Source: Sporichthyaceae bacterium
GTDB taxonomy: Bacteria > Actinomycetota > Actinomycetes > JAKEEW01
NCBI GenBank assembly: GCA_022616375.1
Contig: JAKEEW010000326.1
Location: 1-39,216, forward strand
Reading direction: 5' to 3'
DNA: 39,216 nucleotides
Shown: positions 10,358 to 29,398 of the stretch, in pieces
How positions within the stretch are numbered: the first letter of the stretch is position 1
How the letters are laid out: each line of letters begins with the position of its first letter
Translations under genes and position numbers: made by a program
The notes under the pieces: model-generated
Databases searched by the model: none
The model's input: only the letters and a program-made list of their open reading frames with translations
What the model was told of the DNA's origin: nothing

Positions 10358-10372
10358 GGGAGGGTCGCCACG

Positions 10373-13382: not shown

Positions 13383-13414
13383 GCGGTAGTTGCCGAGGCA
13401 ACCAACGATCAAAC

Positions 13415-13452: not shown

Positions 13453-13575
13453 GGTTACCAGCCCTATCGATACCGGGCGAAAACGGTTCACTGTGCGGGC
13501 CGCTGGTTACCTTACGTATGCATTCGGATACGGTACGAGGTCTTTACTGCGTAACGCCTACCGTCCGATCTGCTG

Positions 13576-13654: not shown

Positions 13655-13703
13655 TCATGCCAGGGACGCTCCACTTGAGTACATCCAGTCATGGAGGTAG
13701 CGA

Positions 13704-14840: not shown

Positions 14841-14866
14841 GTGGTGCGACGTCAGTAAGACGACAA

Positions 14867-14904
14867 ACGGTGCGGCGGGTGGGATCTCCGGCCCGCCGCA
14901 CCGT
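14867..14904. terminator. Perfect 13-bp hairpin between convergent genes
   Basis: ACGGTGCGGCGGG (14867-14879) is the exact reverse complement of 14892-14904, with a 12-nt loop. It lies between the ScyD-like stop (14840) and the convergent ATP-grasp stop (14922), so it can act in both directions. There is no long T-tract. Confidence 0.65.
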
Positions 14905-14921
14905 CTCGTCTGACTGACGAC

Positions 14922-16271
14922 CTAGCCGGCCGGAGCTCCCGCGGTGGCATCGGCCCGCGGCGGGGGTGGTCCGGCCGTCAGCGAGGCGTCCTGACCCGAC
15001 CACGGCATCTTGGTCCGGGTGACCGGCTGGCCGACCATCTTCACGTCGATCTTCGCGGCGTAGTCCTCGAGCCGCTGCTTCACGTCGTCGAACGAGGTGC
15101 CGATCAGGATCAGGAACCCGAGGATGTTGTTGCCTTCCGGCGGCCGTTTGATGAGGTCGCCGGGGTGCGCGGTTATCTTCGCCATCAGGGTCTGCTCGGA
15201 GTTGGTCACCTCGTCCGGGACGGTGACGTACTCCACCTCACCGGCCTGGCTGATCAGGCACGTGCCCATCATGTAGACGCCGGTCGGGGAGTAATGCTGC
15301 ACCCGCGGCTTCACCCCGCGGGCCACGTTCATCACCGCGCGGATCGGGCAGTAGTCCGCGGTCACCCGGGCCACCAGGTCGAGGCCGCCACCACCGGGCC
15401 GGATCGCGATCTCGACCAGATGCGGCTTGTCCTGATGGAACCTGATCTCCGCGTGCATGGCGCTGCGGCGCAGCCCCTGGGCGTGCGCGGCCGCCTTGAC
15501 GATCTGCTGGATCTCGGCCATCTGCGCGTCGGTGAGGTAGGTCGGAGCCACGTGCACGTCGTCGTCGAACGTGTCGCCCTCGACCGTGGCCCGGTCCACG
15601 ACCGAGCCGAGGTAGACGTCATCGTCCCAGGCCAGCGCCTCGAAAAGGTGCTCGTGGCCGTCCAGGTAGGACTCGACGAGGAGGCCGTACGGTCCCAGAT
15701 CGAGGCCCTCGGCCTCCATCAGATACCACGACATTCCCTGCATGCCCTTGATGGCGTCGGCCCACCTGACCTCGAGCTCGGCCGGGTCGTCGATCCGGAA
15801 CACGAAGTTGCTGGCCGCGCCGAGCGTGGGCTTGAGCACCACCGGGTAGCCGAAGTCGGCGGCCGCGGCCTTGGCCTCGTCCAGATCCGCGACCAGCCGG
15901 AACTGCGGGATGGGCAGCCCCGCGGCCTGGTAGGCCTGCCGCATCAGCAGTTTGTTGCGGCTCTTGCGCGCCGCGTCCACCCCGACGCTGGGTAGGCCGA
16001 GTGCGTCGGCCACCGCGGCCACGGTCATCACCGCGGACTCGGAGAACGTGAACACCCCGTCGAAACCAACCTCGTCGTGCCACGCGCGCGCCGCCGCGAT
16101 GATCTCGTCGATGTGCTGGGACCCGGCGACCCGATACCGATCCGCCGGCCAGTAGTCCGGATCGCCGACCCCGTTGAGGATGTACAGGTCCGCGCCGAAG
16201 TCCTTCACCTGCTGGTAGCGGGACAGATAGTAGGTGGCGTTCTGGCGCGCCTCCATGCCGAGTAGCTTCAT
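14922..16271 (-). CDS. ATP-grasp ligase A
   Basis: A 449-residue ATP-grasp enzyme, MKLLGMEARQNATYYLSRYQ at its N-terminus. I prefer the ATG at 16271 because GGGGAGGCGGAG lies just upstream; the ATG at 16298 would overlap the cupin's end region and put that site inside the gene. The ATP-grasp fold shows FGYPVVLKPTLGAASNFVF (P-loop-like lid with the ATP-binding lysine), YGLLVESYLDGHEH and the metal-binding HLVEIAIRPGGGGLDLV. Such enzymes activate a carboxylate as acyl-phosphate and join it to an amine, as in the L-amino-acid ligase/BacD and carnosine-synthase groups. It ends an operon with the N-hydroxylase and cupin genes (19 bp after the cupin stop), so its substrate may be the hydrazine product. 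Confidence 0.87.
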   Translation of the reverse strand: MKLLGMEARQNATYYLSRYQQVKDFGADLYILNGVGDPDYWPADRYRVAGSQHIDEIIAAARAWHDEVGFDGVFTFSESAVMTVAAVADALGLPSVGVDAARKSRNKLLMRQAYQAAGLPIPQFRLVADLDEAKAAAADFGYPVVLKPTLGAASNFVFRIDDPAELEVRWADAIKGMQGMSWYLMEAEGLDLGPYGLLVESYLDGHEHLFEALAWDDDVYLGSVVDRATVEGDTFDDDVHVAPTYLTDAQMAEIQQIVKAAAHAQGLRRSAMHAEIRFHQDKPHLVEIAIRPGGGGLDLVARVTADYCPIRAVMNVARGVKPRVQHYSPTGVYMMGTCLISQAGEVEYVTVPDEVTNSEQTLMAKITAHPGDLIKRPPEGNNILGFLILIGTSFDDVKQRLEDYAAKIDVKMVGQPVTRTKMPWSGQDASLTAGPPPPRADATAGAPAG

Positions 16272-16290
16272 GGACTCCGCCTCCCCGAAA

Positions 16291-16662
16291 CTAGCCATCC
16301 GAGGCCGAGGTGTGCCGGGCAGCGAACTTCTCGGTCATCTCGGCGTCCCACCAGACGCTGTAGAACTGGAAGTCGGTGCCCGACTCGTTGACGATCGTGT
16401 GGTTCGTGCCGGGCGGCATGAAGGCCACGTCACCTCTGCTGAACGGGCTGCGCTCGCCATTTGCCTCGAGCACCGCGTCGCCGGAGATAGCGACGAAGAT
16501 CTCGTATTCGTGATGCGAGTGCGGGGTGGACGCCCCGCCCGGCTCGATCACGCACCAGGCCCCCTCGAACGGTGCGTTGATGGCCTCCCACGGCATCAGC
16601 CGCTGGGTCAGCGCACCGTACTCGGCCTTCATGTTGTCCCGGTCCAAGTTGCGAATATCCAC
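16291..16662 (-). CDS. Free-standing cupin, candidate hydrazine-forming (N-N) subunit
   Basis: A 123-residue single-domain cupin. The GTG at 16662 follows GGGAGGAACTG; a longer frame would enter the N-hydroxylase gene. Cupin motif 1 is complete, PHSHHEYEIFVAISG, with metal ligands H48, H50 and E54. Motif 2, GDVAFMPPGTNHTIVN, supplies H88. In known hydrazine synthetases (for example Spb40 of s56-p1 and Tri28 of triacsin biosynthesis) a zinc cupin domain fused to a MetRS-like domain rearranges an aminoacyl ester of N6-hydroxylysine into an N-N bond. Here the cupin is a separate protein, 13 bp downstream of a lysine/ornithine N-hydroxylase, and a MetRS-like protein is encoded at 25908. The role is inferred from this context. 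A plain regulatory or isomerase cupin is the alternative. Confidence 0.8.
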   Translation of the reverse strand: MDIRNLDRDNMKAEYGALTQRLMPWEAINAPFEGAWCVIEPGGASTPHSHHEYEIFVAISGDAVLEANGERSPFSRGDVAFMPPGTNHTIVNESGTDFQFYSVWWDAEMTEKFAARHTSASDG

Positions 16663-16675
16663 CAGTTCCTCCCGG

Positions 16676-17983
16676 TCAGGCCGATGCGGCAACGCTTGAC
16701 AGCAGGGTCGGTTCACTGCGGCTGGCCAGCACGTCGGTGACGATTTCGCCGGCCCTGATGGCAAGCACGCTCATGAGCGAGTCCGCGATCCCGTGGCTGC
16801 CCTCGTTGGTGCCCTGCAGGTAGCAGCCCGCGGTCACGGCGGGTGGGGTCAGCATCCGGTAGGCCCGGCTGACCGCGATCTCGGCCACACCTACCTCGGC
16901 AGCAAGGTTACGGATGATGGTCGGCATGGCCGGCTCGAAGCCGGTGCCGAGCAGCACCAGGTCGCAGGACAGCTCCTCGGTCACCCGGCCCATCTGGTTG
17001 GTCAACGTCAGCATGACGTCGTCGCCCTCCATCCGGGCGCCGGTGACGTCAACCATGGTGATCATCCGAAGCCGTTGGGTGCCGGTGAGCCGCTCCAGGT
17101 ACATCTGCCGGTACAGGCCGTCGAGCATGCCCGGGGTCACCCCGGCGTAGTTGGTCTGGCGCATCTCGTGCAACACGTGCCGGCGCGCCTCGGGTGCAGC
17201 CGAGAAGAACTCGTCGGTGAACGACGGGAAGTACAGCTCGTTGGTGAACTTGCTGGTCTGGTAGTACTCCAGCCCGACCGACCGGATCACCATCGCGCAC
17301 TCTGCCTTGGGGAGGCGCTGGTGGGACTCCCACAGCATCTCGGCGGCGCTCTGCGCGGCCCCGACCACGACGATCCGGTGCGGCGATTCGGGATCCAGGT
17401 CAGCGGTGCGCCAGGAGTACTCGGTGCTGTGCACGAAGCGCTCGCGGGGCAGATCGTGGAACACCTCAGGAATGCGCGCCTCCCGGCCGATCCCGATGAC
17501 CAGGTTGCTCGCTCCGATCGTGGACCCGTCGGCAAGGTGGACCAGCCAGCCGGTGACCTCGCCGCCGCTGGACCGTAACGGTTCGACCCGCTCGCAGCGC
17601 CGCCCGTAGTCCACCCGGACCTTGGTGAGCGAGTCGGCGACCCACTGCAGATAGTCCGAGATCTCCAGCCTAAATGGCAGGAAACTTGCCATATTTACAA
17701 AATCGTTTAACCGGCCCACGGAATGCAGGTAGTTGACGAAGGAGAACGCGCTGCGCGGGTTCCGCAGGGTCACCAGATCCTTCAGGAAAGACACCTGGCT
17801 CTGCGTCCAAGGCAGCATCATCCCGCGCTGCCAGACCACGTTCTCGTGCTGTTCGATGACCAGCGTGCTGCTGGCCAGCTCGGGCGGCGCCAACTCCTCA
17901 ACGGCGACGGCCAGCGCGAGGTTTGCCGGCCCGGCACCAATTGCAAGTAACTCCACCTCTTGGTGATCAAACGCTGCCGTCAC
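16676..17983 (-). CDS. L-lysine N6 / L-ornithine N5 monooxygenase family enzyme
   Basis: A 435-residue flavin N-monooxygenase. The GTG at 17983 follows GAGGAGG at good spacing; the upstream ATG at 18019 lacks one. Motifs in order: FAD-binding GAGPANLALA (residues 16-25), the family block SQVSFLKDLVTLRNPRSAFS with FVNYLHSVGRLNDFVNMASF, NADPH-binding VVVGAAQSAAEML, and the C-terminal VLLGTGFEPA and GSHGIADSLMSVLAIRAGEI. Enzymes of this family hydroxylate the side-chain amine of lysine or ornithine using O2 and NADPH. It leads an operon with a cupin and an ATP-grasp gene, and no siderophore synthetase is nearby. N6-hydroxylysine as the precursor of an N-N bond is therefore more likely than a hydroxamate. 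Lysine versus ornithine cannot be settled by eye. Confidence 0.9.
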   Translation of the reverse strand: MTAAFDHQEVELLAIGAGPANLALAVAVEELAPPELASSTLVIEQHENVVWQRGMMLPWTQSQVSFLKDLVTLRNPRSAFSFVNYLHSVGRLNDFVNMASFLPFRLEISDYLQWVADSLTKVRVDYGRRCERVEPLRSSGGEVTGWLVHLADGSTIGASNLVIGIGREARIPEVFHDLPRERFVHSTEYSWRTADLDPESPHRIVVVGAAQSAAEMLWESHQRLPKAECAMVIRSVGLEYYQTSKFTNELYFPSFTDEFFSAAPEARRHVLHEMRQTNYAGVTPGMLDGLYRQMYLERLTGTQRLRMITMVDVTGARMEGDDVMLTLTNQMGRVTEELSCDLVLLGTGFEPAMPTIIRNLAAEVGVAEIAVSRAYRMLTPPAVTAGCYLQGTNEGSHGIADSLMSVLAIRAGEIVTDVLASRSEPTLLSSVAASA

Positions 17984-18137
17984 CGGGTGTCCTCCTCGTA
18001 GGCGGCGGTAGATGCGCATCGAATGATGTCCGGTAGGACGGGTTCGACACGTGTCGTGGGGTAAGCCAGGCCCGCGAAATCACGCGCACGACTTCCTTCC
18101 GACGAATCGTTGTGCCGCGCACGCGGACGGTAAGTGC

Positions 18138-18211
18138 GTCGCGGCTGCCTGTGACCGACCATATGCGGTCCGCTGCACCGTGTCACGGGGCCGTGGCTGC
18201 ACGTAACTGTG
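18138..18211 (-). promoter_or_regulatory. Promoter P1 of the N-hydroxylase/cupin/ATP-grasp operon
   Basis: On the reverse strand this reads -35 GTGACA (18186-18181), a 17-nt spacer and -10 TATGGT (18163-18158). The block is almost identical to 27329-27404 in front of the MetRS-like operon, including CACAGTTAC about 22 nt upstream of the -35 and GGTCACAGG downstream of the -10. The spacer GTGCAGCGGACCGCA is conserved to the base. The half-sites GTGAC and GTCAC flanking the core could bind a regulator. The rest of the 313-bp gap (17984-18296) holds no credible gene. It is a 5' leader of about 170 nt and the 3' end of the MFS unit. Confidence 0.75.
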
Positions 18212-18296
18212 TGTATTTCACAGGTTTTTGAGCGACCTGCCCGATAGGCCTAATCCGCTATTGATCGGTGACCGTGTGTTACACCGCGACTGTTGT

Positions 18297-19613
18297 CTAC
18301 CGCTCAGTAGTAATGCCGGCGTCGACGGGTGCGTCGGCACCCGCTGCGGCGTCGGCGCTCGGCACCGCGCCGGAACCGGGTACGGCCGGCAAGCGGCGCG
18401 GATCGCGCACCGAGGCGAGCACGAAGCCGAGCGCGACCACTTCGACGAGCGCGATGAAGATCCAGACCTGGTGCCCGAGTTGGGCGAGCATGATGCCGCC
18501 CACCACCGGACCGACGGCCTGACCGACTCCGAACATGACCTGGAAGCTGCCGATGTAGCGGCCCTTGAGATGTGGCGGTCCGGCCATAGCCGCGTAGGCA
18601 AACGTGGCTGGACCACCGAGAATCTCGCCGAGGGTCCAGATCAGCGTGCCGATGATGATGACGGCCGGCCCCAGCGGCAGGGCGTAGAACGCGACCCCGC
18701 CCGCGATCAGCGCATACGCCAGCGCGATCGAAATCCGCATCGGCCAGGTTTGCGAGACTTTTGTCACCAGCAGCTCGAACATGATGACGATCGCGCCGTT
18801 CAGCGAGACCGCGAGGGTGTACCAGAAGATGGCCACGCCGGCGGCCTGGATGTCGAGCGGAAGCGTGGACAGGTACTGCATGTAGACCGCGACGCCGAGG
18901 AACGCGGCAATCAGGTAGAGCACGTAGCGCCGGTCGCGCAGCACGTCCAGATAGCTCCCGGTCGGCACTGCCGCACCGGCATCGGCGCCGTCCGGGTCCG
19001 GGGCGTGCCTGGTCTTCGCCGGCAGTGCGAACAGCGCGAGGATCGCGTATGCCAGTGCGATCAGCGCCTCGCCCCAGAACAGCAGCGTGTACCGCTCGTC
19101 GTTGAGGTGGTAGAGCGCGTAGCCGATCAGCGGTGCGGCCGTGCTGCCGACGTTGAGCCCGAACCGGTACATCGCGAACATCATGATCTGCCGGTCGTCC
19201 GCGGTGAGCTCGGACAGCAACGTCGCCGAGGCCGGCCGGTAGATCTGGCTGACCAGCCCGACCGCCGCGGCCACGACCAGCAGCAGCGCATAGTTCGGCA
19301 GGTAGAGCAGCGACGCGGTGAACACCGCGGTGCCGGCCATGCTGATCACGGTGGCATTGCGGGCGCCGAGCCGGTCGGCCAGCATCCCGCCGATGAATGT
19401 ACCCGCTACTTCGCCGGCGCCGTAGACGCCGAGCGTGAGGGCCGCTAACTGGACCGAGTAGCCCTGTGAGGTGACGAACAGGACCAGGAAGATGTTCAGG
19501 AACCCGCCGATCCGGTTGATGAACACTCCGAGGAGCATGACCTTCACTGCCATCGGAGCGAGGCGGAAGGTCTCCCAGACCTTGGCGGCAGGTGGGGTGG
19601 TTTCGGTCGCCAT
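18297..19613 (-). CDS. MFS transporter, likely exporter of the cluster product
   Basis: A 438-residue major facilitator with about 12 hydrophobic helices. The first helices (MAVKVMLLGVFINRIGGFLN) are followed by the loop 2-3 signature region GTFIGGMLADRLGARN, typical of MFS drug/H+ antiporters. FALPAKTRHAPDPDG begins the central cytoplasmic loop. The C-terminus is a hydrophilic Ala-rich tail (SADAAAGADAPVDAGITTER). No Shine-Dalgarno is evident before the ATG at 19613, so it may be leaderless or poorly initiated. It lies inside the cluster, divergent from the tandem ATP-grasp-like genes (114 bp apart), which suggests export of the product and self-protection. Confidence 0.87.
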   Translation of the reverse strand: MATETTPPAAKVWETFRLAPMAVKVMLLGVFINRIGGFLNIFLVLFVTSQGYSVQLAALTLGVYGAGEVAGTFIGGMLADRLGARNATVISMAGTAVFTASLLYLPNYALLLVVAAAVGLVSQIYRPASATLLSELTADDRQIMMFAMYRFGLNVGSTAAPLIGYALYHLNDERYTLLFWGEALIALAYAILALFALPAKTRHAPDPDGADAGAAVPTGSYLDVLRDRRYVLYLIAAFLGVAVYMQYLSTLPLDIQAAGVAIFWYTLAVSLNGAIVIMFELLVTKVSQTWPMRISIALAYALIAGGVAFYALPLGPAVIIIGTLIWTLGEILGGPATFAYAAMAGPPHLKGRYIGSFQVMFGVGQAVGPVVGGIMLAQLGHQVWIFIALVEVVALGFVLASVRDPRRLPAVPGSGAVPSADAAAGADAPVDAGITTER

Positions 19614-19727
19614 CGATCGTCAGCATCGCAGATGTGCAACCGACCCGCTACCGGCCGTAAACTCCTAGTTCGAGAGTGGGGTTGCGGGATTCGGACCGCG
19701 CGATCGGGCTGGCCGAGGGGGGCGCCG

Positions 19728-21074
19728 ATGACGGCCAACGCGCTTACCGAGCGATACCTGGCCGAGGTCGCCCGGCGTGGCATGCGGCCGACTGAGCTCA
19801 TCGAGGCCGCACTCGATCCCGAGCTGCGGCTGCCGTGGACGACGTACGAGGGGCGCTGTCTGAGCCGCCCGGTGTTCCTGGAGTACCCGCACTATGTCCG
19901 GCTGGTTGGCGATCTCGAGAACCTGCACGCGGCGCTGACCGACTTACCGCGCCGGTTGTTCGGCGGCGACCTGGCCGCATTCGCCCGCGCGGTGGGGATG
20001 ACCGACGTTCAGGTTGGGGCCATCATGCGGGCCCAGGCGCCGGCGCCCACCCGGTTTGCCCGCGCCGACCTGTATCCCAACGGTTCGGGATTCCAGCTGA
20101 TGGAAATCAACATGGGCAGCACGGTCGGTGGCGGCGACAACGCGATGCTGAATCGCAGCTTCCTGAACCATCCGATGGTCGCCGAGTTCGTTGCCACCAA
20201 CCGGTTGTCGTTCGTGGACACCCTGGCGCAGATCGTGCACACCATCGTGACCGAGTGCCAGGTCCCGGCCGGAACCCGCCCGCTGATGGCAGCGGCCGAC
20301 TGGCCGGCCAGCTTCGACTCGCTGCTGCCGATCCTGCGGTACAGCGCCGAGCAGCTGCGACCGCTGGGCATCGAGATGGTGCCGTGCCATGTCGGTCAAC
20401 TGTCCGCGCGTGACGGTCGGGTGTGGCTCGACGGCCGGCCGGTCGACGTGGTCTACCGGCTGTTCATGATCGAGGACCTGCTCGATCCGCAGGGACCCGC
20501 ACTCATCGAGCCCGTCCTGCGAGCCGCCGAGCGCGGCGAGGTGAAGCTGTTCACTCCGCTGGACGCGGAGCTGTACGGCAGCAAGGGTGCCCTTGCGCTG
20601 CTGTCCGACGAGGCGAACCGGCACCTCTACGACGCCGGTGAGCTGGACAGCTTGGACCGGATCCTGCCGTGGACCCGGATGGTCAGACCGGGTCCGGTCA
20701 CGGTTGACGGCGAACAGGTCGACCTGCTCGAGTTCGCCTTCGCCCAACGCGCTGAACTGATTCTCAAGCCGACCCTGCGATACGGCGGCTTTGGTGTCGT
20801 GCCGGGCTGGCTGGTGGACGCCGGCGAGTGGAGCCGGCAGCTGGCCGCGGCCATGGATCGCCCGTTCGTGCTGCAGCGCCGCATCCGTCCGGAGCCCGAG
20901 CTGTTCCCGGCCGAGCACGGATTGGAGTCGTGGACCCTGATCTGGGGCGCGTTCCTGACCGCGGCCGGATACGGCGGGCAGTACATCCGCGGCACGACCG
21001 ATCCCGACAGTGGTGTCGTCAACATGGCCTCCGGCGCCACCGCGACCTGCTGCTTCCACCAGACCGCGCCCTGA
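19728..21074 (+). CDS. Circularly-permuted-type ATP-grasp-like protein, copy 1
   Basis: A 448-residue protein starting at the ATG at 19728 behind GAGGGGGGCGCCG. I see features of circularly permuted ATP-grasp ligases: FQLMEINMGSTVGGGDNAM (the acidic metal/ATP region usually at the C-terminus of normal ATP-grasps, here early), ELYGSKGALALLSDEANRHL, then AELILKPTLRYGGFGVV with the ATP-binding lysine and FVLQRRIRPEPELF. Such enzymes form amide bonds in small peptides without carriers. Copy 2 follows at 21183 with the same length and most residues identical. The family call is moderately sure; the substrates are unknown. It is divergent from the MFS gene. Confidence 0.75.
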   Translation: MTANALTERYLAEVARRGMRPTELIEAALDPELRLPWTTYEGRCLSRPVFLEYPHYVRLVGDLENLHAALTDLPRRLFGGDLAAFARAVGMTDVQVGAIMRAQAPAPTRFARADLYPNGSGFQLMEINMGSTVGGGDNAMLNRSFLNHPMVAEFVATNRLSFVDTLAQIVHTIVTECQVPAGTRPLMAAADWPASFDSLLPILRYSAEQLRPLGIEMVPCHVGQLSARDGRVWLDGRPVDVVYRLFMIEDLLDPQGPALIEPVLRAAERGEVKLFTPLDAELYGSKGALALLSDEANRHLYDAGELDSLDRILPWTRMVRPGPVTVDGEQVDLLEFAFAQRAELILKPTLRYGGFGVVPGWLVDAGEWSRQLAAAMDRPFVLQRRIRPEPELFPAEHGLESWTLIWGAFLTAAGYGGQYIRGTTDPDSGVVNMASGATATCCFHQTAP

Positions 21075-21097
21075 CCGGTCGCTCCTCCCGAGCGGGG

Positions 21098-21125
21098 TTG
21101 ACAAGTCGGGCCAAGCGGGCAGACT
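21098..21125 (+). promoter_or_regulatory. Possible sigma70-type promoter for ATP-grasp-like copy 2
   Basis: TTGACA at 21098-21103, a 16-nt spacer and CAGACT at 21120-21125, 57 bp before the next start. The -35 is perfect and the -10 is weak. It suggests copy 2 can be transcribed separately from copy 1. Confidence 0.4.
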
Positions 21126-21182
21126 CCGCAGCAAAGCGTGATCACCCGACCTCGTGCCGTCACTGACTGAGGGGCCCGACGA

Positions 21183-22532
21183 ATGACGCACAACGCGCTC
21201 ACCGAGAAGTACCTCGAGGAGATCGCCCGGCGCGGGGTAGGGCCAACGGAACTCATCGCCACCGCCATGCAGCCCGAGGTGCGGTTGGCTCCGACCACGT
21301 TTCTTGGCCGCTGCCTGAGCCGGCCGGTGTTCCTCGAGTACGCCGACCGGGAGCGGCTCGGCGTCGACCTGGAGAACCTGCATGCCGCCCTGACCGGGCT
21401 GCCCGCACGGCTGTTCGGTGGCGACCTGGCCGCGTTCGCCCGCGCGGTCGGGATGACCGATGCGCAGGTCACCGCAATCATGCGGGGCGGGGGCGAGGCA
21501 CCCACCCGGTTCGCCCGGGCCGATTTCTACCCGAACGGCACCGGGTTCCAGCTCATGGAGATCAACATGGGCAGCACCGCGGGTGGCGGCGACAACGCGG
21601 TGCTCACCCGCGCGTTCCTGACCCACCCGATGCTGGCCGAGTTCGTCGAGGCCAACCAGCTGGCCCACATCGACACGATGGAACAGGTCGCGGACACGTT
21701 GCTGACCGAGAGCAAGGTGCCAAGCGGGATGCGCCCGCTGGTAGCAGCCGCGGACTGGCCGGCCAGCTACGAGAAGCTGGAGCCGACGCTGCGCTACAGC
21801 GCGCAGCAGCTGGCGCCGTTCGGCATCGACATGGTGCCCTGCCATGTCGGGCAGCTGTCCGTGCACGATGGTCGAGTCTGGATCGAAGGCCGCCCGGTCG
21901 ACGTGATCTACCGGGTCTTCATGATCGAGGACCTGCTCGACCCGGTCGGGCCGGAGCTGATCGATCCGGTGCTGCGGGCCGCCGAACGCGGTGAGGTGTC
22001 CATCTTCACCCCGATCGACTCCGAGCTCTACGGCAGCAAGGGCGCGCTCGCCATGCTCTCCGACGAGGCGAACCGGCACCTCTACAGTGCGAACGAACTG
22101 GCCAGCCTGGATCGGATCCTGCCCTGGACCCGGATGGTGCGGCCCGGTTCGGTCACCGTCGAGGGCGAGCGGGTGGAGCTGGCCGACTATGCGGTCGGCG
22201 CGCAGACCGACCTCATCCTCAAGCCGACCGCCTTGCATGCCGGAATGGGTGTGGTGCCCGGTTGGATGGTCGAGCCGGACGAGTGGAAGTCCCAGCTGAC
22301 CGCGGCCATGGACGGTCCGTTCGTGCTCCAGCGCCGGATCCGGCCGGTGCCTGAGCTGTTCCCGGCCCCGGACGGGATGCAGCCGTGGGTGCTGACCTGG
22401 GGTGCGTTCCTGTCCTCCGCCGGATACGCCGGGCAGTTCGTCCGCGGCACCACCGAGCCGGACGGTGGCGTGGTGAACATGGCCACCGGCGCCACCGCCA
22501 CCAGCTGCTTCCACCAAACCGTTCCGACCTAG
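21183..22532 (+). CDS. Circularly-permuted-type ATP-grasp-like protein, copy 2
   Basis: A 449-residue close paralogue of the gene at 19728, collinear from end to end (MTHNALTEKYLEEIARRG; GDLAAFARAVGMTDAQV; FQLMEINMGSTAGGGDNAV; ELYGSKGALAMLSDEANRHL; DLILKPTALHAGMGVV). Start ATG behind GAGGGGCCCGACGA. The differences cluster in the middle (KLFTPLD versus SIFTPID; LRYGGFG versus LHAGMGV; VATNRLSFVDTLAQ versus VEANQLAHIDTMEQ). This is the pattern expected if the two copies now take different acyl or amine substrates. It is convergent with the NTF2-like gene. The fold assignment carries the same caution as copy 1. Confidence 0.75.
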   Translation: MTHNALTEKYLEEIARRGVGPTELIATAMQPEVRLAPTTFLGRCLSRPVFLEYADRERLGVDLENLHAALTGLPARLFGGDLAAFARAVGMTDAQVTAIMRGGGEAPTRFARADFYPNGTGFQLMEINMGSTAGGGDNAVLTRAFLTHPMLAEFVEANQLAHIDTMEQVADTLLTESKVPSGMRPLVAAADWPASYEKLEPTLRYSAQQLAPFGIDMVPCHVGQLSVHDGRVWIEGRPVDVIYRVFMIEDLLDPVGPELIDPVLRAAERGEVSIFTPIDSELYGSKGALAMLSDEANRHLYSANELASLDRILPWTRMVRPGSVTVEGERVELADYAVGAQTDLILKPTALHAGMGVVPGWMVEPDEWKSQLTAAMDGPFVLQRRIRPVPELFPAPDGMQPWVLTWGAFLSSAGYAGQFVRGTTEPDGGVVNMATGATATSCFHQTVPT

Positions 22533-22547
22533 CCCGTCGGGACTTGG

Positions 22548-22623
22548 CGATCATTACCGGCGATCTGCGCATTTGATCACCCAGTTTGGGCGTTTTGTCT
22601 GCGCAAACCGCCGGTAATGATCG
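22548..22623. repeat. Inverted repeat between convergent genes (IR-B)
   Basis: CGATCATTACCGGCG (22548-22562) is the exact reverse complement of 22609-22623. Pairing continues inward imperfectly (ATCTGCGC / GCGCAAAC), giving arms of about 25 bp around a 26-nt loop. It separates the convergent genes ending at 22532 and 22639. It is probably a bidirectional transcription stop or a dispersed palindromic element. Confidence 0.7.
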
Positions 22624-22638
22624 GCGAGGAGGCGGGCG

Positions 22639-22986
22639 CTACTGCAACGGCCACAGACAGGCGTGCACGCAGCGCCAGCCTTCCGGACGCCGCTCGTAGG
22701 TGTCGACGTAGCGGGTGTAACGGCCCTCGGTAACGAAGCTGCGCGCGGAGACCACTGCGGTATTGCCATCGACGTGGATCACGACCTGGTCGATCCCGAT
22801 CGTGGGCAGCGGTGCGCTGTTCACGTTGTCGATGTAGCGCTGTGGTTCCCAGACCTCGCCGGACTTGCCGTCCAGGTACCGGAAGTCCGGGGACATGATC
22901 GGCTCCAGGACCTCCCACTTGCCCTGCCGGAAGGCGTCGATGAACTGCTCGTTGAGCTCGGTCAGTTCCTTGATGTCGCTATCCAC
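22639..22986 (-). CDS. NTF2-like / DUF4440-type protein
   Basis: A 115-residue alpha+beta cone-fold protein. The GTG at 22986 follows GGGAG at about 10 nt. The N-terminal helix TELNEQFIDAFRQGKWEVLE, then MSPDFRYLDGKSGEVW, IHVDGNTAVVSARSF and the closing RRPEGWRCVHACLWPLQ are typical of the SnoaL/DUF4440 group. These small proteins act as cyclases, isomerases or hydrolases, or simply bind ligands, in many biosynthetic clusters. It lies downstream of ATP-grasp B on the same strand but 187 bp away, across the inverted repeat at 23034-23196. It may be a separate unit. No specific activity is predictable. Confidence 0.8.
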   Translation of the reverse strand: MDSDIKELTELNEQFIDAFRQGKWEVLEPIMSPDFRYLDGKSGEVWEPQRYIDNVNSAPLPTIGIDQVVIHVDGNTAVVSARSFVTEGRYTRYVDTYERRPEGWRCVHACLWPLQ

Positions 22987-23033
22987 GGTGGTGCGTCTCC
23001 CTTGACTAGTGGGAACTACTGGGTCGGGGCTTT

Positions 23034-23196
23034 AGGGCTTGTCTCCTGGGTCCTAGCCGGCGTGGATCGGCGGCCCAGACAACGACTGGCCGTGTTGTCG
23101 TCGTCGCCGATAGTTCCACTATCGGCTCCTCCTCCGCCTTGCCATTCGTCCCCTGGCCCGCCGCCCGCATCCGTCAAGACCCAGGAGACAAGCCCT
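23034..23196. repeat. 163-bp element bounded by perfect 19-bp inverted repeats (IR-C)
   Basis: AGGGCTTGTCTCCTGGGTC (23034-23052) is the exact reverse complement of 23178-23196. The right arm encodes the last residues (GLSPG) of ATP-grasp B, whose stop lies inside the element. Long perfect termini with a non-coding centre resemble a MITE-like insertion or a large hairpin. I see no clear target-site duplication. Confidence 0.7.
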
Positions 23197-24460
23197 GGAC
23201 GTCGACCGGGGCCGGGTCGACCGCCCGCACGGTCAGCGCGGCCTCGGCCGCATCGAGTGCGGCCTGGGCTTGTTCGGCCGTCTCGGTCACCGCGGTGGCG
23301 ATGGCGATCCGGCCGAACAGGGTGCCGGCCGGTGGCGGCGAGACCACGTCGCCGGCCTTCACCAGCGGCTCGGCCCGATCCACCTCGGGTGGCAGCGTCG
23401 TGTGGTCGAACTCGACGGTGTCGATCGTGGTGCGCTCCTGGTCGACGTAGAAGAACCGCACCGCACCTACCAGCTTGCGGTCCGCGACCACCGCGGGGGG
23501 TTGCCCGCAGGCCACCGCGGCCGCGGCGAGCCCCGGGTCGATCCCGGTGGCGCGCAACCCGAGATAGGGGATCAGATCGCCGCCGAGCCGCGAGTTCACC
23601 TCGATGACCTTCGGCCCGGACAGGGTGAGCTTGAGCTCGGTGTGGGTCATCCCGTCGGTGAAGCCGAGCGCGGTGTGCGTGTCCTGCACGATCCGCAGCA
23701 GCTGCGGATCGGTGAGCAGCGGGTCGGCCGCATCGACCACGTGCCCGATCTCCTCGAAGTAGGGCGGGTAGCCGATGTGTTTGCGGGCCACGAACATCGG
23801 CAGCACCTGGCCGTGGTAGACCGCGGCGTCCAGGCTGATCTCGGGCCCGGTCAGATACTCCTCCACCAGCACCGGCAGGTCGTACTGCCAGGCACCGGTG
23901 AACGTGGTGTCGTGCGCGAAGCCGAACCTGGCCACCACATCGTCCGGGCTGTCCGCCCGCACCACGCCCAAGCTGGCCGCCAGCGCGCGTGGCTTCAGCA
24001 CGACCGGGTAGCCGATCTCGGCAGCGGCCGCCAGTGCGTCGTCCAAGCTCGAGGTCAGCACCGAGCGAGGTTGCGGGACACCGGCCGCGGCCAGCGTCTG
24101 CCGGGTCAGGTGCTTGTCCCGGCACCGCATGATCATGTCAGGGTCACCGCCGGGCAACCCGAACTCGGCGGCCACCTTCGCGCTCTGCAGGATCCGGGCC
24201 TCGTCCCAGCTCAGCACGCCCTGCAGTGGCTCGCGCTGGTTGACCTCGCGGGCCGCCGCCACCATCTCCTCGACGTCGGTCGTGCTGGTCAGGTCGCTGA
24301 GCACGGTCCAGCCGTGCAGATACTCGCACTCCCAGCTCGGCTCGGCGCCGAGCAGCAAGTGCACCCGGTAGCCGGTCAAGATCGACCGCAACAGGTACTC
24401 CCGATACGGCCGGCCGCCGGTCGTGATCAGCAGCAGCAGCGGGCGCTCGGTCGGAGTCAT
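23174..24460 (-). CDS. ATP-grasp ligase B
   Basis: A 428-residue ATP-grasp enzyme starting MTPTERPLLLLITTGGRPY at 24460. The ATG overlaps the stop of the small beta-rich gene (ATGA) and is preceded by GAGGAGG. Motifs: CRDKHLTRQTLAAAGVPQPR, IGYPVVLKPRALAASLGVV with the ATP-binding lysine, DLPVLVEEYLTGPEISLDAA and the metal-binding PKVIEVNSRLGGDLIPYLG. This is the carboxylate-amine ligase pattern. A C-terminal domain of about 100 residues follows. The last residues and stop codon fall inside the inverted repeat at 23034-23196, so the native C-terminus may have been altered by an insertion. It is in the MetRS-like operon and so is probably co-expressed with hydrazine formation. Confidence 0.87.
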   Translation of the reverse strand: MTPTERPLLLLITTGGRPYREYLLRSILTGYRVHLLLGAEPSWECEYLHGWTVLSDLTSTTDVEEMVAAAREVNQREPLQGVLSWDEARILQSAKVAAEFGLPGGDPDMIMRCRDKHLTRQTLAAAGVPQPRSVLTSSLDDALAAAAEIGYPVVLKPRALAASLGVVRADSPDDVVARFGFAHDTTFTGAWQYDLPVLVEEYLTGPEISLDAAVYHGQVLPMFVARKHIGYPPYFEEIGHVVDAADPLLTDPQLLRIVQDTHTALGFTDGMTHTELKLTLSGPKVIEVNSRLGGDLIPYLGLRATGIDPGLAAAAVACGQPPAVVADRKLVGAVRFFYVDQERTTIDTVEFDHTTLPPEVDRAEPLVKAGDVVSPPPAGTLFGRIAIATAVTETAEQAQAALDAAEAALTVRAVDPAPVDVQGLSPGS

Positions 24461-24801
24461 CCGGCCACCTCCTCGATGATCGAGATACCTGACGAGCCGT
24501 CGATGCGCTTCCAGTCCTCGGTCAGCCGGACCCGCCCGTCGGCCAGCCGGGTCGGAGTGCTCACGCACGCGCCGGCCACGATCTGTCCGGCCGCGGTCAC
24601 GAAGCAGTAGGAGGCATCGATGGTGTCGTCCGGCCGCACCTGGCCGACCAGCCGGCCGACCCGGACCGAGCCGCCGGAGAACTCCGCCCAGACCAGGTCG
24701 CCGTCCTGGTGATAGTGCCCGAGCGGGATGCTGCCGCCGGCCTGCGGGTCGTGGTCAACCGGTTGGAAGCGGCGGTTGTGGTAGTCGATCCGGCTGGTCA
24801 T
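24457..24801 (-). CDS. Small beta-rich protein of the group mislabelled 'n-acetylglutamate synthase'
   Basis: A 114-residue protein starting MTSRIDYHNRRFQPVDHDPQ. Both ends overlap neighbours by ATGA (FAD enzyme upstream, ATP-grasp B downstream), so the start is firm and translation is coupled. The pattern YHNRRF, GHYHQDGDLVWAEFSGGSVR, GRLVGQV, FVTAAGQIVAGACVSTP, RLTEDWKRIDGSSG and IIEE matches a family of about 110-residue proteins often database-labelled N-acetylglutamate synthase without an acetyltransferase domain. The alternating strands suggest a small beta-barrel that could bind a ligand. The function is unknown. Its position between a DAO-like oxidase and a ligase suggests a role in handling a reactive intermediate, which is speculation. 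Confidence 0.75.
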   Translation of the reverse strand: MTSRIDYHNRRFQPVDHDPQAGGSIPLGHYHQDGDLVWAEFSGGSVRVGRLVGQVRPDDTIDASYCFVTAAGQIVAGACVSTPTRLADGRVRLTEDWKRIDGSSGISIIEEVAG

Positions 24802-25904
24802 GACGTACTCCCTCCGGTCAGCGACCTGGCGGACGGCTGGCCGATCGGCCGAAACGCACCGGCGAGCTGGTCGGCGGCCAGCTTGCTCGCCGCCAGCACG
24901 GTCTTCACCGAGCCGCCGGAGCCGCCGGTGAACGTCACCAGGAAGTGCACGGTGTCGACCACCGATCGGATCCGCAGGATCGGGTCGTCCGGGTAGCAGT
25001 CGGCGGCTCGGGCGGTGCTCAGCAGCCGGCCGAGCCGGAGCCGCGGGAACCGCGCCTCGGCCAGTGCGGCCGCCGTGTTGGCCAGCGCAGGTGCGTCCGG
25101 TGGCCGATCCGGGTCGACGCCCCACAGCTCGGTGGGTAGCCCGAGCAGCAGCCCGTCGTCCCCGGCCGGCCGACCGTACAGACCGGTGATCTCGTCCACG
25201 AACTGCGAAGGGCGCCAGCCATCGGTCCGATACACGCCGTACTGGATGGACTTGGTGCGGTAGCCGCCGGCGGGTAACCGGCTGGACCGCAACAGCGCCG
25301 GAGTCCAGGCACCGGCCGCCACCACGACGAGGTCGTACTCCCGGCGCTGACCGCCGATTGTCACCGCGACCGAGCCCGACTCGGCGAGCGTGATGGTCTG
25401 GGCCGGCGCGGCCAGCACGCAGACCCGGCGGCGGACCGCACGGTCGGCGAGCGTGGCGGCGCGTAGCGCGTCCGGTGCGGTGTAGCCGGCCACCCGTTCC
25501 AGCACCGCGGTGGCCCCGTCCGGGACTCCGACCCAGCCGAGCGCGCCGAGGTCCTCGGCCGAGCCGCGCCGCGCGGAGCCGGGCAGCAGCGTCTCGATCT
25601 CGGCGATCTCGGCATCGATCCCGCTGGCGTCGGACCGCAGGTACACCGACTCGACCGGCTGGAACCGCGCCCACCGGCGCAGCGTCCGGCTGGAGCGCAG
25701 CTCCACCATGCTGAGCGCGGCCAGCCGGCGCTGTTCGGGGTCCCGCTCGTAGCAGCGGACCGCGCCGCCGGACGCCGCGGTCGCGTCGGTCCGGTCCGGC
25801 CCGCCGGTGAGGAGGTCGAGCTGCCAGCGGGTCTGGCTGGCCAGCCGCCAGGCCAGCATGGCGCCGGCCAGGCCGCCGCCGATGATGCAGCCGTGCACCG
25901 GCAC
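24798..25904 (-). CDS. FAD-dependent oxidoreductase, DAO (glycine/D-amino acid oxidase) type
   Basis: A 368-residue flavoprotein starting at a GTG at 25904, 3 bp after the MetRS-like stop, with GGTAGGTG upstream. The N-terminus VPVHGCIIGGGLAGAMLAWRL is the dinucleotide-binding GxGxxG fold. YDLVVVAAGAWTPALL is the conserved central motif of DAO-family oxidases, and HFLVTFTGGSGGSVKTVLA is the C-terminal FAD contact. In the s56-p1 and triacsin pathways a DAO-like FAD enzyme cleaves the lysine-glycine hydrazine adduct to release hydrazinoacetate. The same step is inferred here because the gene is directly coupled to the MetRS-like gene. An ordinary amine oxidase cannot be excluded. Confidence 0.85.
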   Translation of the reverse strand: MPVHGCIIGGGLAGAMLAWRLASQTRWQLDLLTGGPDRTDATAASGGAVRCYERDPEQRRLAALSMVELRSSRTLRRWARFQPVESVYLRSDASGIDAEIAEIETLLPGSARRGSAEDLGALGWVGVPDGATAVLERVAGYTAPDALRAATLADRAVRRRVCVLAAPAQTITLAESGSVAVTIGGQRREYDLVVVAAGAWTPALLRSSRLPAGGYRTKSIQYGVYRTDGWRPSQFVDEITGLYGRPAGDDGLLLGLPTELWGVDPDRPPDAPALANTAAALAEARFPRLRLGRLLSTARAADCYPDDPILRIRSVVDTVHFLVTFTGGSGGSVKTVLAASKLAADQLAGAFRPIGQPSARSLTGGSTS

Positions 25905-25907
25905 CGG

Positions 25908-27287
25908 TCACCTACCGCCGAAGGCGGGCCGGTCTCGGCCGGCCAGTGCGGCCAGCACGCCGGAGTCCAGGCCGGCGCCGGTGGACAGCGCGGCCAGCAG
26001 GCACCGGATCGCCAGCGCGGAGTCGAAGCCGATCAGGCGCAGCGCCTGGTCGGCCCGCTCCAGCTCGGCCGCCACCAGCTCGCTCGGAACCGCGGCGTCA
26101 CGGGGTGGCTTACCGTCCAGGAATGGCCGGATGTAGTCGCAGAACGCCCGGTAGCCAGCCTCGGTGAAGTCGCTCTGGTAGCGGTCGGGCCGGTCCCAGG
26201 ACAGGTAGAGCCGGACCAGCTCGGCATCCTCGTCGGCCAGGAACTCGTCCGCCCACAACGCGTGGTTGCGGCTGGTGGAGAACTTCTTACCCTCGAGCAG
26301 GTAGAGCTCGTTCACGGTGGCACCGCGGCTGAGCGGCCTGGGCACCCCGCAGGCGGCCAGGATGGCCGGATACAGGATGGCGAAGTAGAACGCGTTGTCG
26401 ATGCCGTTGAAATGCCAGACCCCGTCGACGTCGTTCCAGGCCTCCACCCACTGGGTCAGGCCGTTGGCCCGCGGACGCAATGCGTGCGCGGCGCCGTACA
26501 GGTAGCTGAAGCCGAGCTCGGTGGGGAAGTCCACCCGCATCCCGGCCAGCGGCCCGGCTAACTCGATACCCCAGTCGGTGACGTAGGCCAGCGGGTAGTC
26601 GGGCAGCGGCGTGCGCAGGTACTGCTCCAGCACGGACCGGACCCGGCCGGGCAGCTCGGCTTGCATCCATTCGGCAAGCAACCGCTCTCGGTAGTCCTCG
26701 AGCGGCAGCACCGGCACCGTTGCGGTGACCGGCCGCGGGCTGCCGCCGCAGCGGGCGCAACTCGGGTCGACCAGGGTCTGGGCCGAGGCGAACGCCCCGC
26801 AGCCCTCGCAGGACAGCCCATTCGCGCCCTCGCCGCAGTTGGCGCACTTACCCACCACGTAGGAGTGGTGCAAGGTGCGGCCGCAGTCGGCGCACTCGTG
26901 CAGCGTGACCTCGCGCATCGGCACCGTGCCGTTGGTCACCAGCTCGGTCAGCATGCCGGCGACCGCGGCCTGGTAGCCGGGATCCTGCGGGTCGAGGAAC
27001 GCGTCGTAGCCGATCCGGGCCAGCTCGTAGGCGGTGGTGATCTGCCCGCGGAACCTGGCCACCATCTCCAGCGGATCCATGTCCAGGTTCTCGGCCTTGG
27101 TCAGCACGTAGTTCGGATGAACGTCGATCCCGGCCAGCGTGAGCACCCGCTCGCCGCGCGCGCGGGCGGCCCGCGAGGCGATGTCGGCGGCCAGGTACGG
27201 CCCGGACAGGTGGCCGATGTGCAGCGGACCGTTGCAGGTCGGCTGCGGGATGACAATGACGGTGACGCCGGTCGACTGCTCCGCCAT
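25908..27287 (-). CDS. Methionyl-tRNA-synthetase-like protein, candidate aminoacyl-activating half of a split hydrazine synthetase
   Basis: A 459-residue class I synthetase-like protein. The ATG at 27287 follows GAGGAGGGG. It keeps the catalytic signatures: PLHIGHLSGPY with HIGH at residues 23-26 and GKKFSTSR (KMSKS counterpart) at 333-340. It also keeps a MetRS-type zinc knuckle insertion with four CxxC pairs (C132/135, 148/151, 160/163, 177/180). The helical anticodon-binding region is cut to about 110 residues, so it is shorter than a housekeeping MetRS. In hydrazine synthetases this domain activates an amino acid (glycine in Spb40) and esterifies N6-hydroxylysine, and a fused cupin makes the N-N bond. 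The cupin here is a separate gene at 16291. It leads a four-gene operon controlled by promoter P2. Confidence 0.85.
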   Translation of the reverse strand: MAEQSTGVTVIVIPQPTCNGPLHIGHLSGPYLAADIASRAARARGERVLTLAGIDVHPNYVLTKAENLDMDPLEMVARFRGQITTAYELARIGYDAFLDPQDPGYQAAVAGMLTELVTNGTVPMREVTLHECADCGRTLHHSYVVGKCANCGEGANGLSCEGCGAFASAQTLVDPSCARCGGSPRPVTATVPVLPLEDYRERLLAEWMQAELPGRVRSVLEQYLRTPLPDYPLAYVTDWGIELAGPLAGMRVDFPTELGFSYLYGAAHALRPRANGLTQWVEAWNDVDGVWHFNGIDNAFYFAILYPAILAACGVPRPLSRGATVNELYLLEGKKFSTSRNHALWADEFLADEDAELVRLYLSWDRPDRYQSDFTEAGYRAFCDYIRPFLDGKPPRDAAVPSELVAAELERADQALRLIGFDSALAIRCLLAALSTGAGLDSGVLAALAGRDRPAFGGR

Positions 27288-27328
27288 CGAGGTAGCCCCT
27301 CCTCGTCCGTGGCGCGCCGGACCGGGGT

Positions 27329-27404
27329 GTCGCGGCCGCCCTGTGACCGCACCATATGCGGTCCGCTGCACGCTGTCACGACTGTGTGGCGGTAGGTAAC
27401 TGTG
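27329..27404 (-). promoter_or_regulatory. Promoter P2 of the MetRS-like operon
   Basis: Reverse strand: -35 GTGACA (27379-27374), 17-nt spacer, -10 TATGGT (27356-27351). Over about 75 bp it matches P1 (18138-18211), including CACAGTTAC upstream, the spacer core GTGCAGCGGACCGCA and GGTCACAGG plus GCCGCGAC downstream. The operon start codon is 64 nt from the -10. Conservation of the spacer and flanks, which a bare promoter would not need, points to a shared regulator site. Confidence 0.75.
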
Positions 27405-27673
27405 CGTGCCGCGGCGGCATTGAAGGGGCCGTTGCAAAGCGCGAGATGGCGTCGCACCGTGACCGTCCGTTACCCGATTACAGCTATCCCACCCGGGCAA
27501 CTTCGACCCCGTTTCGGGGATGGACAACACGCGTGCTTACGCACAGTATTACCGGCGGTACAGGACGTTGCAGCACCCTGCAAACGGCTTGTAGCCTGCC
27601 GATGTTTCTGCCGTAGCGTGACCAATCGCCTACGGTAGGCACACCAAGGGAAACGACCCTGACGGAGGCTCTC
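27405..27673 (+). promoter_or_regulatory. Leader region of the forward operon
   Basis: A non-coding region between promoter P2 and the methyltransferase start. At 27537-27549 it contains TTACGCACAGTAT, close to TTACGCATAGTAT and TTACGCATAGTGT in front of the two ScyD-like genes. TGGACA lies 17 nt before CAGTAT. This is a plausible but weak promoter. No credible gene was found in the whole 386-bp gap from 27288. Confidence 0.4.
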
Positions 27674-28390
27674 GTGGACCCTGTGGTTCCGTCCCAGGAC
27701 GCCGCCGCCATCCCGCTCTGGGATGGCGCCTACGACCCGACCCAACTGCAGGGGCACGGAAATCTGTGGGGCGACCCGCCGGTCCCGTATGCAGAGACCG
27801 CAGCCAGACTGTTTGCCGATCACTCCGCGAAAGTGGTCCTCGACCTGCCGTGCGGAGACGGTCGCAACCTGCCGCCGCTGGCCGGTGGTGCCTCGATCCT
27901 GCTCGCCGGCGACACCTCGCCGAACGCGATGGCGATCGCCGAGCGGGTCGCCGCCAAGGCCGGGATCCGGGACAAGGCGATATTCGTCAAGGTCGACGCA
28001 TTCGATACCGGCCTGCTGGACAACTCGGTGGACGGGATTTTCTGCTGGGATCTGTTAGGCCACTTGACCAACCCGGAAGACGCGCTGCTCGAGATGTATC
28101 GCATCACCCGGCCGGGCGGCCACATTGTGGCCAACATGTGGACCATGAACGACTGCCAGGTGACCGATCCGAATATTCGAAAGACCGGTCCTAGGGAATT
28201 CATCGATCACTTCGAGTTCTACTGCAAGTTCTACGATCGCGACGATCTCGAGGCGCTGCTGAGCTCGGTCGGCATGACGGCCAGCTCGATCGACGTGGAC
28301 ACCTGGTGGGAGCCGCCGCATGCGGAGTACCGCACCTACGACCACCAGCACGAGAGCCTGATCTTCACGGTCGAGAAGACGGGGACCTGA
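27674..28390 (+). CDS. SAM-dependent methyltransferase
   Basis: A 238-residue class I methyltransferase. The GTG at 27674 has GGAGG 5 nt upstream. Motif I is VVLDLPCGDGRNL (residues 54-66), followed by the acidic strand ILLAGDTSPNAMAIAERV. The post-motif segment is SVDGIFCWDLLGHLTNPEDAL, then MYRITRPGGHIVANMW. The C-terminal part (FEFYCKFYDRDDLEALLSSVG) is typical of small-molecule methyltransferases. It is the first gene of a seven-gene forward operon. N-methylation of the hydrazine or of the diamino acid would be chemically sensible (negamycin, for example, has an N-methylhydrazine), but the substrate is not shown by the sequence. Confidence 0.85.
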   Translation: MDPVVPSQDAAAIPLWDGAYDPTQLQGHGNLWGDPPVPYAETAARLFADHSAKVVLDLPCGDGRNLPPLAGGASILLAGDTSPNAMAIAERVAAKAGIRDKAIFVKVDAFDTGLLDNSVDGIFCWDLLGHLTNPEDALLEMYRITRPGGHIVANMWTMNDCQVTDPNIRKTGPREFIDHFEFYCKFYDRDDLEALLSSVGMTASSIDVDTWWEPPHAEYRTYDHQHESLIFTVEKTGT

Positions 28391-28399
28391 GGAAGAGCG

Positions 28400-29398
28400 T
28401 TGCGCTATCTGCGAGAGCTGGACTCCACCCACGGCCGTCCCGGCGACTACCAGGTTGCCGAAACCGATGTCGGTGTCGGTTATGCCTCGGCGCACCATGG
28501 CGAGCTTTTGCAAGGCATGTTCTACGACCCGAACGGTCAGCTGCGTCGCGCACTGGTCACGCTGCCGGATCCGCGCCGAGGCAGCCGCGCGGTCTTTCAT
28601 CCGAGCCAGAACCACTGGGGAATCGTCGGCACCCCCGAGCTGATTAAGGTCCGGCGCGCGGCGATCATCGCATTGCGCGAGTTCTCCCGGCATCCGTCCC
28701 CGGCCAAGGGCGGCCAGATCGAGATCGCCAGCAACGTGCCGCGCGGCGTCGGGATGGGCTCGTCGACCAGCGACGTCGCCGCCACCATCCGGGCGGTGGC
28801 CGACTACCACGGAGTGGCGTTATCCCGCGACGAGATCGGCCGGCTGGCCGTGCTCGCCGAGTGCGCGTCGGACTCGATCATGATCGACGACCGGGTGGTG
28901 CTGTTCGCCCATCGCGACGGGGTGGTGCTGGAGACGCTGGGGCACCGGTTGCCACCGATGATCGTGGTCGGCTGCGACACCGCGCCCGGCGCCGTGGTCG
29001 ACACGCTCGGGCTGCAGCCGGCCGAATACAACGACCACGAGATCGGCGCGTTCCAGGTGCTGCGGGCGGCGTTGCGCCGGGCCATCGCGACCGACGACGT
29101 TGCACTGCTCGGCCGAGTCACCACCGCGAGCGCGCGAATCAACCAGCGCTTCCTGCCCAAGCCCTACCTCGAAGCGCTGCTCACGCTGTGCCAGCAGTTC
29201 GAAGGCTGTGGCGTGCAGGTCGCGCACAGCGGCACCGTCGCCGGCCTGATCTTCGATGGGCGCCGGACGGACGTGGAGCCCAGCGTGCGAGCCTGCGTCG
29301 ACCGGATCGAGGCGCTGGGCCTGGAGATCACCGCGATCATCGGGTTCGAGCCGACCACCACCGCGATCGAGATTGGCGCGGCAAGGGTTCCGGCCTGA
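28400..29398 (+). CDS. GHMP kinase, PduX-like (L-threonine/serine kinase type)
   Basis: A 332-residue GHMP-family kinase starting at TTG 28400 with GAGGAAG upstream, 9 bp after the methyltransferase stop. The N-terminal HHGELLQGMFYD and the ATP-binding loop PRGVGMGSSTSDVAA (residues 114-128), then ECASDSIMIDDRVVLF, resemble the PduX L-threonine kinase group. A C-terminal VAHSGTVAGLIFD is the GHMP motif 3. PduX makes L-threonine O-3-phosphate. The next two genes are a cysteine-synthase-like and an argininosuccinate-lyase-like enzyme, which could turn a phosphorylated hydroxy-amino acid into a 2,3-diamino acid. Threonine versus serine cannot be told by eye. Confidence 0.85.
   Translation: MRYLRELDSTHGRPGDYQVAETDVGVGYASAHHGELLQGMFYDPNGQLRRALVTLPDPRRGSRAVFHPSQNHWGIVGTPELIKVRRAAIIALREFSRHPSPAKGGQIEIASNVPRGVGMGSSTSDVAATIRAVADYHGVALSRDEIGRLAVLAECASDSIMIDDRVVLFAHRDGVVLETLGHRLPPMIVVGCDTAPGAVVDTLGLQPAEYNDHEIGAFQVLRAALRRAIATDDVALLGRVTTASARINQRFLPKPYLEALLTLCQQFEGCGVQVAHSGTVAGLIFDGRRTDVEPSVRACVDRIEALGLEITAIIGFEPTTTAIEIGAARVPA

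What the first reader, a model, noticed from the sequence alone, without database searches (positions are those of the whole stretch)
18138..27404. Two near-identical promoters drive the two halves of the hydrazine machinery
18138-18211 and 27329-27404 (both firing to the left) share CACAGTTAC, GTGACA, an identical 15-base spacer core, TATGGT and GGTCACAGG. Spacer and flank conservation exceeds what RNA polymerase alone needs, so a common regulator site is likely. It ties the N-hydroxylase/cupin operon to the MetRS-like/DAO operon functionally, independent of protein annotation. No cluster regulator gene is visible, so the regulator is probably encoded elsewhere.
Basis: seen in the sequence. 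Interest (0 to 1): 0.72.

Follow-up and report, generated by a model that had tools for sequence, protein, structure and literature searches.

The report
Twin promoters for split hydrazine operons
Two operons that together encode the enzymes for building a nitrogen-nitrogen bond start with near-identical copies of one ordinary bacterial promoter, found nowhere else in this genome; this probably keeps the split pathway in step, but nothing yet shows that a special regulator is involved.

Summary
An 83-column block (18134-18214 and 27325-27407, minus strand) is 67/83 identical. It has 21 consecutive identical bases, GTGACA-17-TATGGT hexamers in both copies, and identities at chance level outside. 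It lies upstream of NMO-cupin-ATP-grasp and of MetRS-like-DAO-ATP-grasp, which are non-homologous genes. Exactly two copies exist in the 4.6-Mb genome. The hexamers match the published actinobacterial housekeeping promoter (nTGACn, about 17-18, TANNNT).

The 'common regulator' inference is not established. Spacer identity (15/17) is no more than the block's flanks predict (40/54; P=0.14). Mismatches are not significantly clustered (p=0.08). The nearest relatives (MetRS 77% and 73%) lack the block at the matching operons. Hence common descent of one promoter segment explains the resemblance as well as an operator does.

Context gives it meaning. In most related loci (46-73% MetRS identity) one gene run holds cupin-MetRS-DAO-NMO. 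Here cupin sits with a different NMO in a second operon, so a second copy of the same promoter would keep the two parts of the split hydrazine synthetase co-expressed. This is modest and testable, not a new kind of system.

The parts
18134..18214 (-). promoter block copy 1, upstream of the NMO-cupin-ATP-grasp operon
   Evidence: 67/83 columns identical to copy 2; only other copy in the genome
18181..18186 (-). -35 hexamer GTGACA of copy 1
18158..18163 (-). -10 hexamer TATGGT of copy 1, 17-nt spacer
18203..18211 (-). upstream box CACAGTTAC of copy 1, 16 nt before the -35
27325..27407 (-). promoter block copy 2, upstream of the MetRS-like-DAO-ATP-grasp operon
27374..27379 (-). -35 hexamer GTGACA of copy 2
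27351..27356 (-). -10 hexamer TATGGT of copy 2, 17-nt spacer
27396..27404 (-). upstream box CACAGTTAC of copy 2, 16 nt before the -35
16676..18019 (-). amino-acid N-monooxygenase (Lys/Orn N-hydroxylase family, closest solved structure KtzI)
   Evidence: Pfam PF13434 E 9e-87; KtzI E 1e-71
16291..16764 (-). cupin (cupin half of a split hydrazine synthetase)
   Evidence: PF07883 E 1e-14; hydrazine-synthetase assignment inferred from context and PMC11705231
14922..16298 (-). ATP-grasp amino-acid ligase 1
   Evidence: PF13535
25908..27287 (-). MetRS-like adenylating half of the hydrazine synthetase
   Evidence: PF09334 E 2e-52
24798..25904 (-). DAO-family FAD oxidoreductase
   Evidence: PF01266 E 1e-20
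23174..24568 (-). ATP-grasp amino-acid ligase 2
   Evidence: PF13535
22639..22986 (-). SnoaL-like/DUF4440 protein, possible end of operon 2
   Evidence: PF14534/PF13474

Best explanation
The two blocks are two copies of one promoter segment of about 83 bp, related by descent: one was duplicated or moved in front of a non-homologous operon. Each carries a housekeeping-type actinobacterial promoter (GTGACA-17-TATGGT), read leftwards, and predicted to start about 130 nt before the NMO gene and about 57 nt before the MetRS-like gene. Having the same promoter, the NMO-cupin-ligase operon and the MetRS-like-DAO-ligase operon are expressed together. That is needed because the hydrazine synthetase is here split, with the cupin in one operon and the MetRS-like part in the other, whereas most relatives hold cupin, MetRS, DAO and NMO in one gene run. 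Shown here: the sequence identity, the two-copy number, the promoter match and the split gene arrangement. Inferred: transcription starts, co-expression and the duplication. Whether a regulator also reads the block is open.
For: Block identity 67/83 with abrupt ends; two copies only against 41 places for a dispersed element found by the same search; these are the only two sigma70-like sites in 13.2 kb and the only two [TG]TGACN-N16-18-TANNNT sites in 39 kb, though about 1.3 are expected by chance; published consensus nTGACn / 17.6 nt / TAnnnT (PMC7682106) and NTGACC/TANNNT (PMC4895711); downstream genes not homologous to each other; cupin directly upstream of MetRS, followed by DAO and in most cases an NMO, in the related loci; MetRS and cupin act together in hydrazine synthetases (PMC11705231).
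Against: No transcript data. The core (27/29) is somewhat better kept than the rest (40/54; Fisher p = 0.04), which selection on promoter or operator would give; a functional role is therefore not separable from descent. No outgroup has the block, so the direction of duplication is unknown.
Confidence: 0.68

Rival explanations
1. A shared operator: a pathway regulator or activator encoded elsewhere binds the block (for example CACAGTTAC at about -60 to -52, or the GACCGCA-TATGG-TGCGGTC palindrome over the -10 in copy 2), and selection for this binding keeps the two promoters alike.
For: Identical spacing of CACAGTTAC, GCCAC, -35 and -10 in both copies; core better kept than flanks, p = 0.04; 7-bp palindrome arms in copy 2.
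Against: Copy 1 has no palindrome arms of 6 bp or more; spacer identity is no better than flank identity predicts (P = 0.14); clustering p = 0.08; no third copy in the cluster or genome; absent from the matching operons of relatives.
Confidence: 0.27
2. A dispersed repeat (MITE/REP-type) that happens to lie before both operons.
For: The genome does carry such elements; one with 41 matches, counting itself, is in this very window.
Against: Only two copies genome-wide, no terminal inverted repeats seen in the block, both upstream of genes of one pathway in the same direction.
Confidence: 0.03
3. Chance resemblance of two independent promoters.
For: None beyond the shared hexamers.
Against: 21 identical consecutive bases; score 35 against a shuffle maximum of 13; 0 in 100 shuffles.
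Confidence: 0.01

Closest known systems
Actinobacterial housekeeping (HrdB/sigma70-type) promoters
   Same: GTGACA-17-TATGGT fits nTGACn-(17.6 mean)-TAnnnT found in Actinoplanes (PMC7682106) and NTGACC/TANNNT in S. coelicolor (PMC4895711)
   Different: similarity between the two copies extends over about 83 bp, well beyond the hexamers
MetRS/cupin hydrazine-synthetase gene clusters (Spb40, PyrN, Tri28 type; split-gene forms such as Afn8/Afn9; review PMC11705231)
   Same: NMO, cupin and MetRS-like proteins encoded together, with a DAO oxidase nearby
   Different: here cupin and MetRS-like genes lie about 9 kb apart in separate operons with twin promoters; in most relatives examined they are adjacent
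Pathway-specific regulons of biosynthetic clusters with repeated operator sites (from general knowledge)
   Same: several operons of one cluster preceded by a common sequence
   Different: no regulator gene in the cluster, only two sites, and the likeness includes the whole promoter rather than a compact operator

Membership tests
Actinobacterial housekeeping-type promoter | -10 TANNNT | tested here: met
   TATGGT in both copies
Actinobacterial housekeeping-type promoter | -35 nTGACn at about 17-18 nt | tested here: met
   GTGACA with a 17-nt spacer in both
Actinobacterial housekeeping-type promoter | mapped transcription start | not testable with these tools
   no RNA data
Regulon operator (shared regulator site) | conservation above the surrounding background in the paired copies | tested here: inconclusive
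   core vs rest p = 0.04, spacer vs flanks P = 0.14, clustering p = 0.08
Regulon operator (shared regulator site) | conserved upstream of orthologous operons in relatives | tested here: not met
   no significant match in L004, L029, L030 or more distant loci; 21-mer absent from G395
Regulon operator (shared regulator site) | cluster-encoded or linked regulator | tested here: inconclusive
   none found within the cluster; MarR-type gene at 5232-6125 is about 9 kb from the nearer operon
Dispersed repeat / MITE | many copies in the genome | tested here: not met
   2 copies; control element 41 matches
MetRS/cupin hydrazine-synthetase cluster | NMO, cupin and MetRS-like proteins encoded together | tested here: met
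MetRS/cupin hydrazine-synthetase cluster | N-N bond formation activity | not testable with these tools
   needs biochemistry

The most novel reading that the evidence does not exclude
When the cupin of a hydrazine synthetase moved out of the ancestral cupin-MetRS-DAO-NMO gene run into a second operon, a copy of the promoter was placed before the new operon, restoring balanced expression of the two parts of one enzyme: promoter duplication as repair of a split operon, possibly with a dedicated regulator reading both copies.
Probability: 0.3. Interest if true: 0.45.

Novelty: new member of a known kind. Interest (0 to 1): 0.3.

Why it matters
It gives an annotation-independent link between two operons of a hydrazine (N-N bond) pathway and predicts that both parts of a split hydrazine synthetase are co-expressed from one promoter type. 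The pair would also be a small natural example of a promoter being copied to keep a divided operon in step.

Tried and rejected
Dispersed repeat: rejected on copy number, with a positive control. Lineage-wide promoter element: the 21-mer at up to 2 mismatches is in none of 394 other genomes of the class, not in viral contigs, and plasmids gave one marginal short hit to the flank, E 6e-3. Conserved operator in relatives: L004 and L029 (G395, MetRS 77%) and L030 (G456, 73%) show no significant similarity; L030 has GTGACA-18-TATCCT before its cupin-MetRS operon, with CGTGACAG.G.GCAG resembling the block at 13/15 positions, but this is not significant (p = 0.26). L004 has a housekeeping-type TTGACG-16-TATCGT about 140 nt before its NMO match, unrelated in sequence. 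Further weaker copies in the window: next best matrix score 10 against 63-65. Riboswitch or RNA leader: no Rfam match in the window. Tandem gene duplication carrying its promoter, as seen for the ScyD/E-like pair, does not apply, since the genes after the blocks are not homologous. tblastx of loci against the window with sum statistics gave noise and was replaced by tblastn. L005 and L006 (Ralstonia-type, MetRS 28-29%) were too distant to inform on promoters.

Full report
Observation. Reading the minus strand at 18000-18350 and 27200-27550 and aligning the two stretches gives a homologous block of 83 columns: 18134-18214 and 27325-27407, 67 identical. From CACAGTTAC through GCCAC and GTGACA to TATGGT the spacing is identical in the two copies; after the -10, copy 2 has two extra single G's. 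The longest identical run is GTGCAGCGGACCGCATATGGT. It is not chance: 0 occurrences in 100 shuffles, best ungapped score 35 against a shuffle maximum of 13. The likeness stops abruptly: the 20-base bins outside the block share 2-8 bases.

Copy number. BLAST of copy 2 against the window's genome (4.64 Mb, 971 contigs) finds only the two copies. The 20-mer core at up to 3 mismatches also finds two, as does CACAGTTAC-N14-18-GTGACA. The same tool finds 41 matches for a palindromic element at 23034-23196, so the search can see dispersed repeats. The 21-mer is in none of 394 other genomes of the class at up to 2 mismatches, nor in viral contigs.

Promoter identity. GTGACA-17-TATGGT fits the actinobacterial housekeeping consensus (NTGACC/TANNNT in S. 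coelicolor, PMC4895711; nTGACn, mean 17.6 nt, TAnnnT in Actinoplanes, PMC7682106). The two copies are the only sites of this type in the 39-kb window and the only two sigma70-like sites in 14800-28000. About 1.3 are expected by chance, so the motif alone proves nothing; position, direction and duplication make the case. The distance from the end of the -10 to the start codon is 139 nt (NMO) and 64 nt (MetRS-like). No Rfam family matches anywhere in the window.

Genes. Operon 1: NMO (16676-18019; PF13434 E 9e-87, nearest solved structure KtzI E 1e-71), cupin (16291-16764), ATP-grasp (14922-16298). Operon 2: MetRS-like (25908-27287), DAO (24798-25904), ATP-grasp (23174-24568), then SnoaL-like (22639-22986). 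In hydrazine synthetases the MetRS-like part adenylates an amino acid and the cupin rearranges the resulting ester to the hydrazine, with an NMO supplying the N-hydroxy partner (PMC11705231). The label 'hydrazine machinery' is thus reasonable, by family membership and context; activity is untested.

Relatives. One MAG (L004/L013/L029 = G395, MetRS 77%) shares the unusual arrangement NMO-cupin-ATP-grasp apart from MetRS. In G456 (L030, 73%) and the more distant loci (46-53%) the cupin lies directly before MetRS and is followed by DAO and, in most, an NMO of only 23-29% identity to the window's. So among the loci seen, the split with a separate NMO/cupin operon is special to the window's organism and G395. 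None of the matching upstream regions carries the block: no significant alignment in L004, L029 or L030, and the 21-mer is absent from the G395 genome. L030 does have GTGACA-18-TATCCT before its cupin-MetRS operon and L004 TTGACG-16-TATCGT before its NMO, i.e. ordinary promoters at similar positions without the shared sequence.

Regulator or common descent? That is true as a description, but if one promoter segment was copied, all positions begin identical. The test is whether parts are better kept than the rest. The promoter core is 27/29 against 40/54 outside (Fisher p = 0.04), but the 17-nt spacer alone (15/17) is no better than the flanks predict (P = 0.14), and mismatches are not significantly clustered (p = 0.08). 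The GACCGCA/TGCGGTC palindrome over the -10 is present in copy 2; copy 1 has no arms of 6 bp or more, the two differing by one base there. No conserved operator is seen in relatives. A regulator is possible and not shown. No regulator gene was found in the cluster; the only HTH gene found on the contig is a MarR-type gene at 5232-6125, beyond a peptidase and an Hsp70-like gene.

Mechanism committed to. Twin copies of one housekeeping-type promoter drive the two operons together, keeping the split cupin and MetRS-like parts and their NMO, oxidase and ligases in step (0.68). Shown: sequence, copy number, promoter fit, gene arrangement. Inferred: starts, co-expression, duplication and its direction. 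The third operon (27674-35879, rightward, starting with a methyltransferase) has no copy, so on this evidence it is not tied in.

Limits. No transcript data. The genome is fragmented (971 contigs, 96.75% complete, 5.77% contamination). No relative closer than class was in the sampled sets around this genome, so footprinting rests on distant relatives.

Noticed in passing
23034-23196: Palindromic element with 19-bp perfect terminal inverted repeats (AGGGCTTGTCTCCTGGGTC) and 39 further matches elsewhere in the genome (41 in all, counting itself and its own reverse self-match). It overlaps the 3' end of the ATP-grasp gene and separates it from the SnoaL-like gene in operon 2, so it may change the ligase's C-terminus and uncouple the last gene.
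   Followed up: partly
5232-6125: Long ORF whose C-terminal part matches MarR-type regulators (PF12802 E 1e-11), the only HTH gene found on the contig.
   Followed up: no
19632-22532: Two tandem paralogous proteins (480 and 449 aa) with no Pfam or NCBIfam match at E 0.001 and no significant PDB match for the second; a 60% identical copy is in the related cluster L030 at 9881-11212.
   Followed up: no
27674-35879: Rightward operon: methyltransferase, GHMP kinase, SbnA-like PLP enzyme, argininosuccinate-lyase-like, ATP-grasp, AlaX-type editing protein, NAD_binding_9 protein; conserved at 59-84% in L029-L031, so it seems part of the same pathway.
   Followed up: partly
27217-27229: Thirteen bases of the promoter spacer (CGGTCCGCTGCAC in inverted sense) recur in the MetRS-like gene at its HIGH-motif codons, about 120 bp downstream; probably coincidence.
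   Followed up: no
L004:4532-4571: Two tandem 20-nt repeats (CATTCACGTGGTCTACCGAT, 90%) upstream of the MetRS gene in the relative G395, a possible operator of its own.
   Followed up: no
12237-14840: Tandem ScyD/ScyE-like genes whose upstream regions are also duplicated (77% over 125 bp).
   Followed up: no
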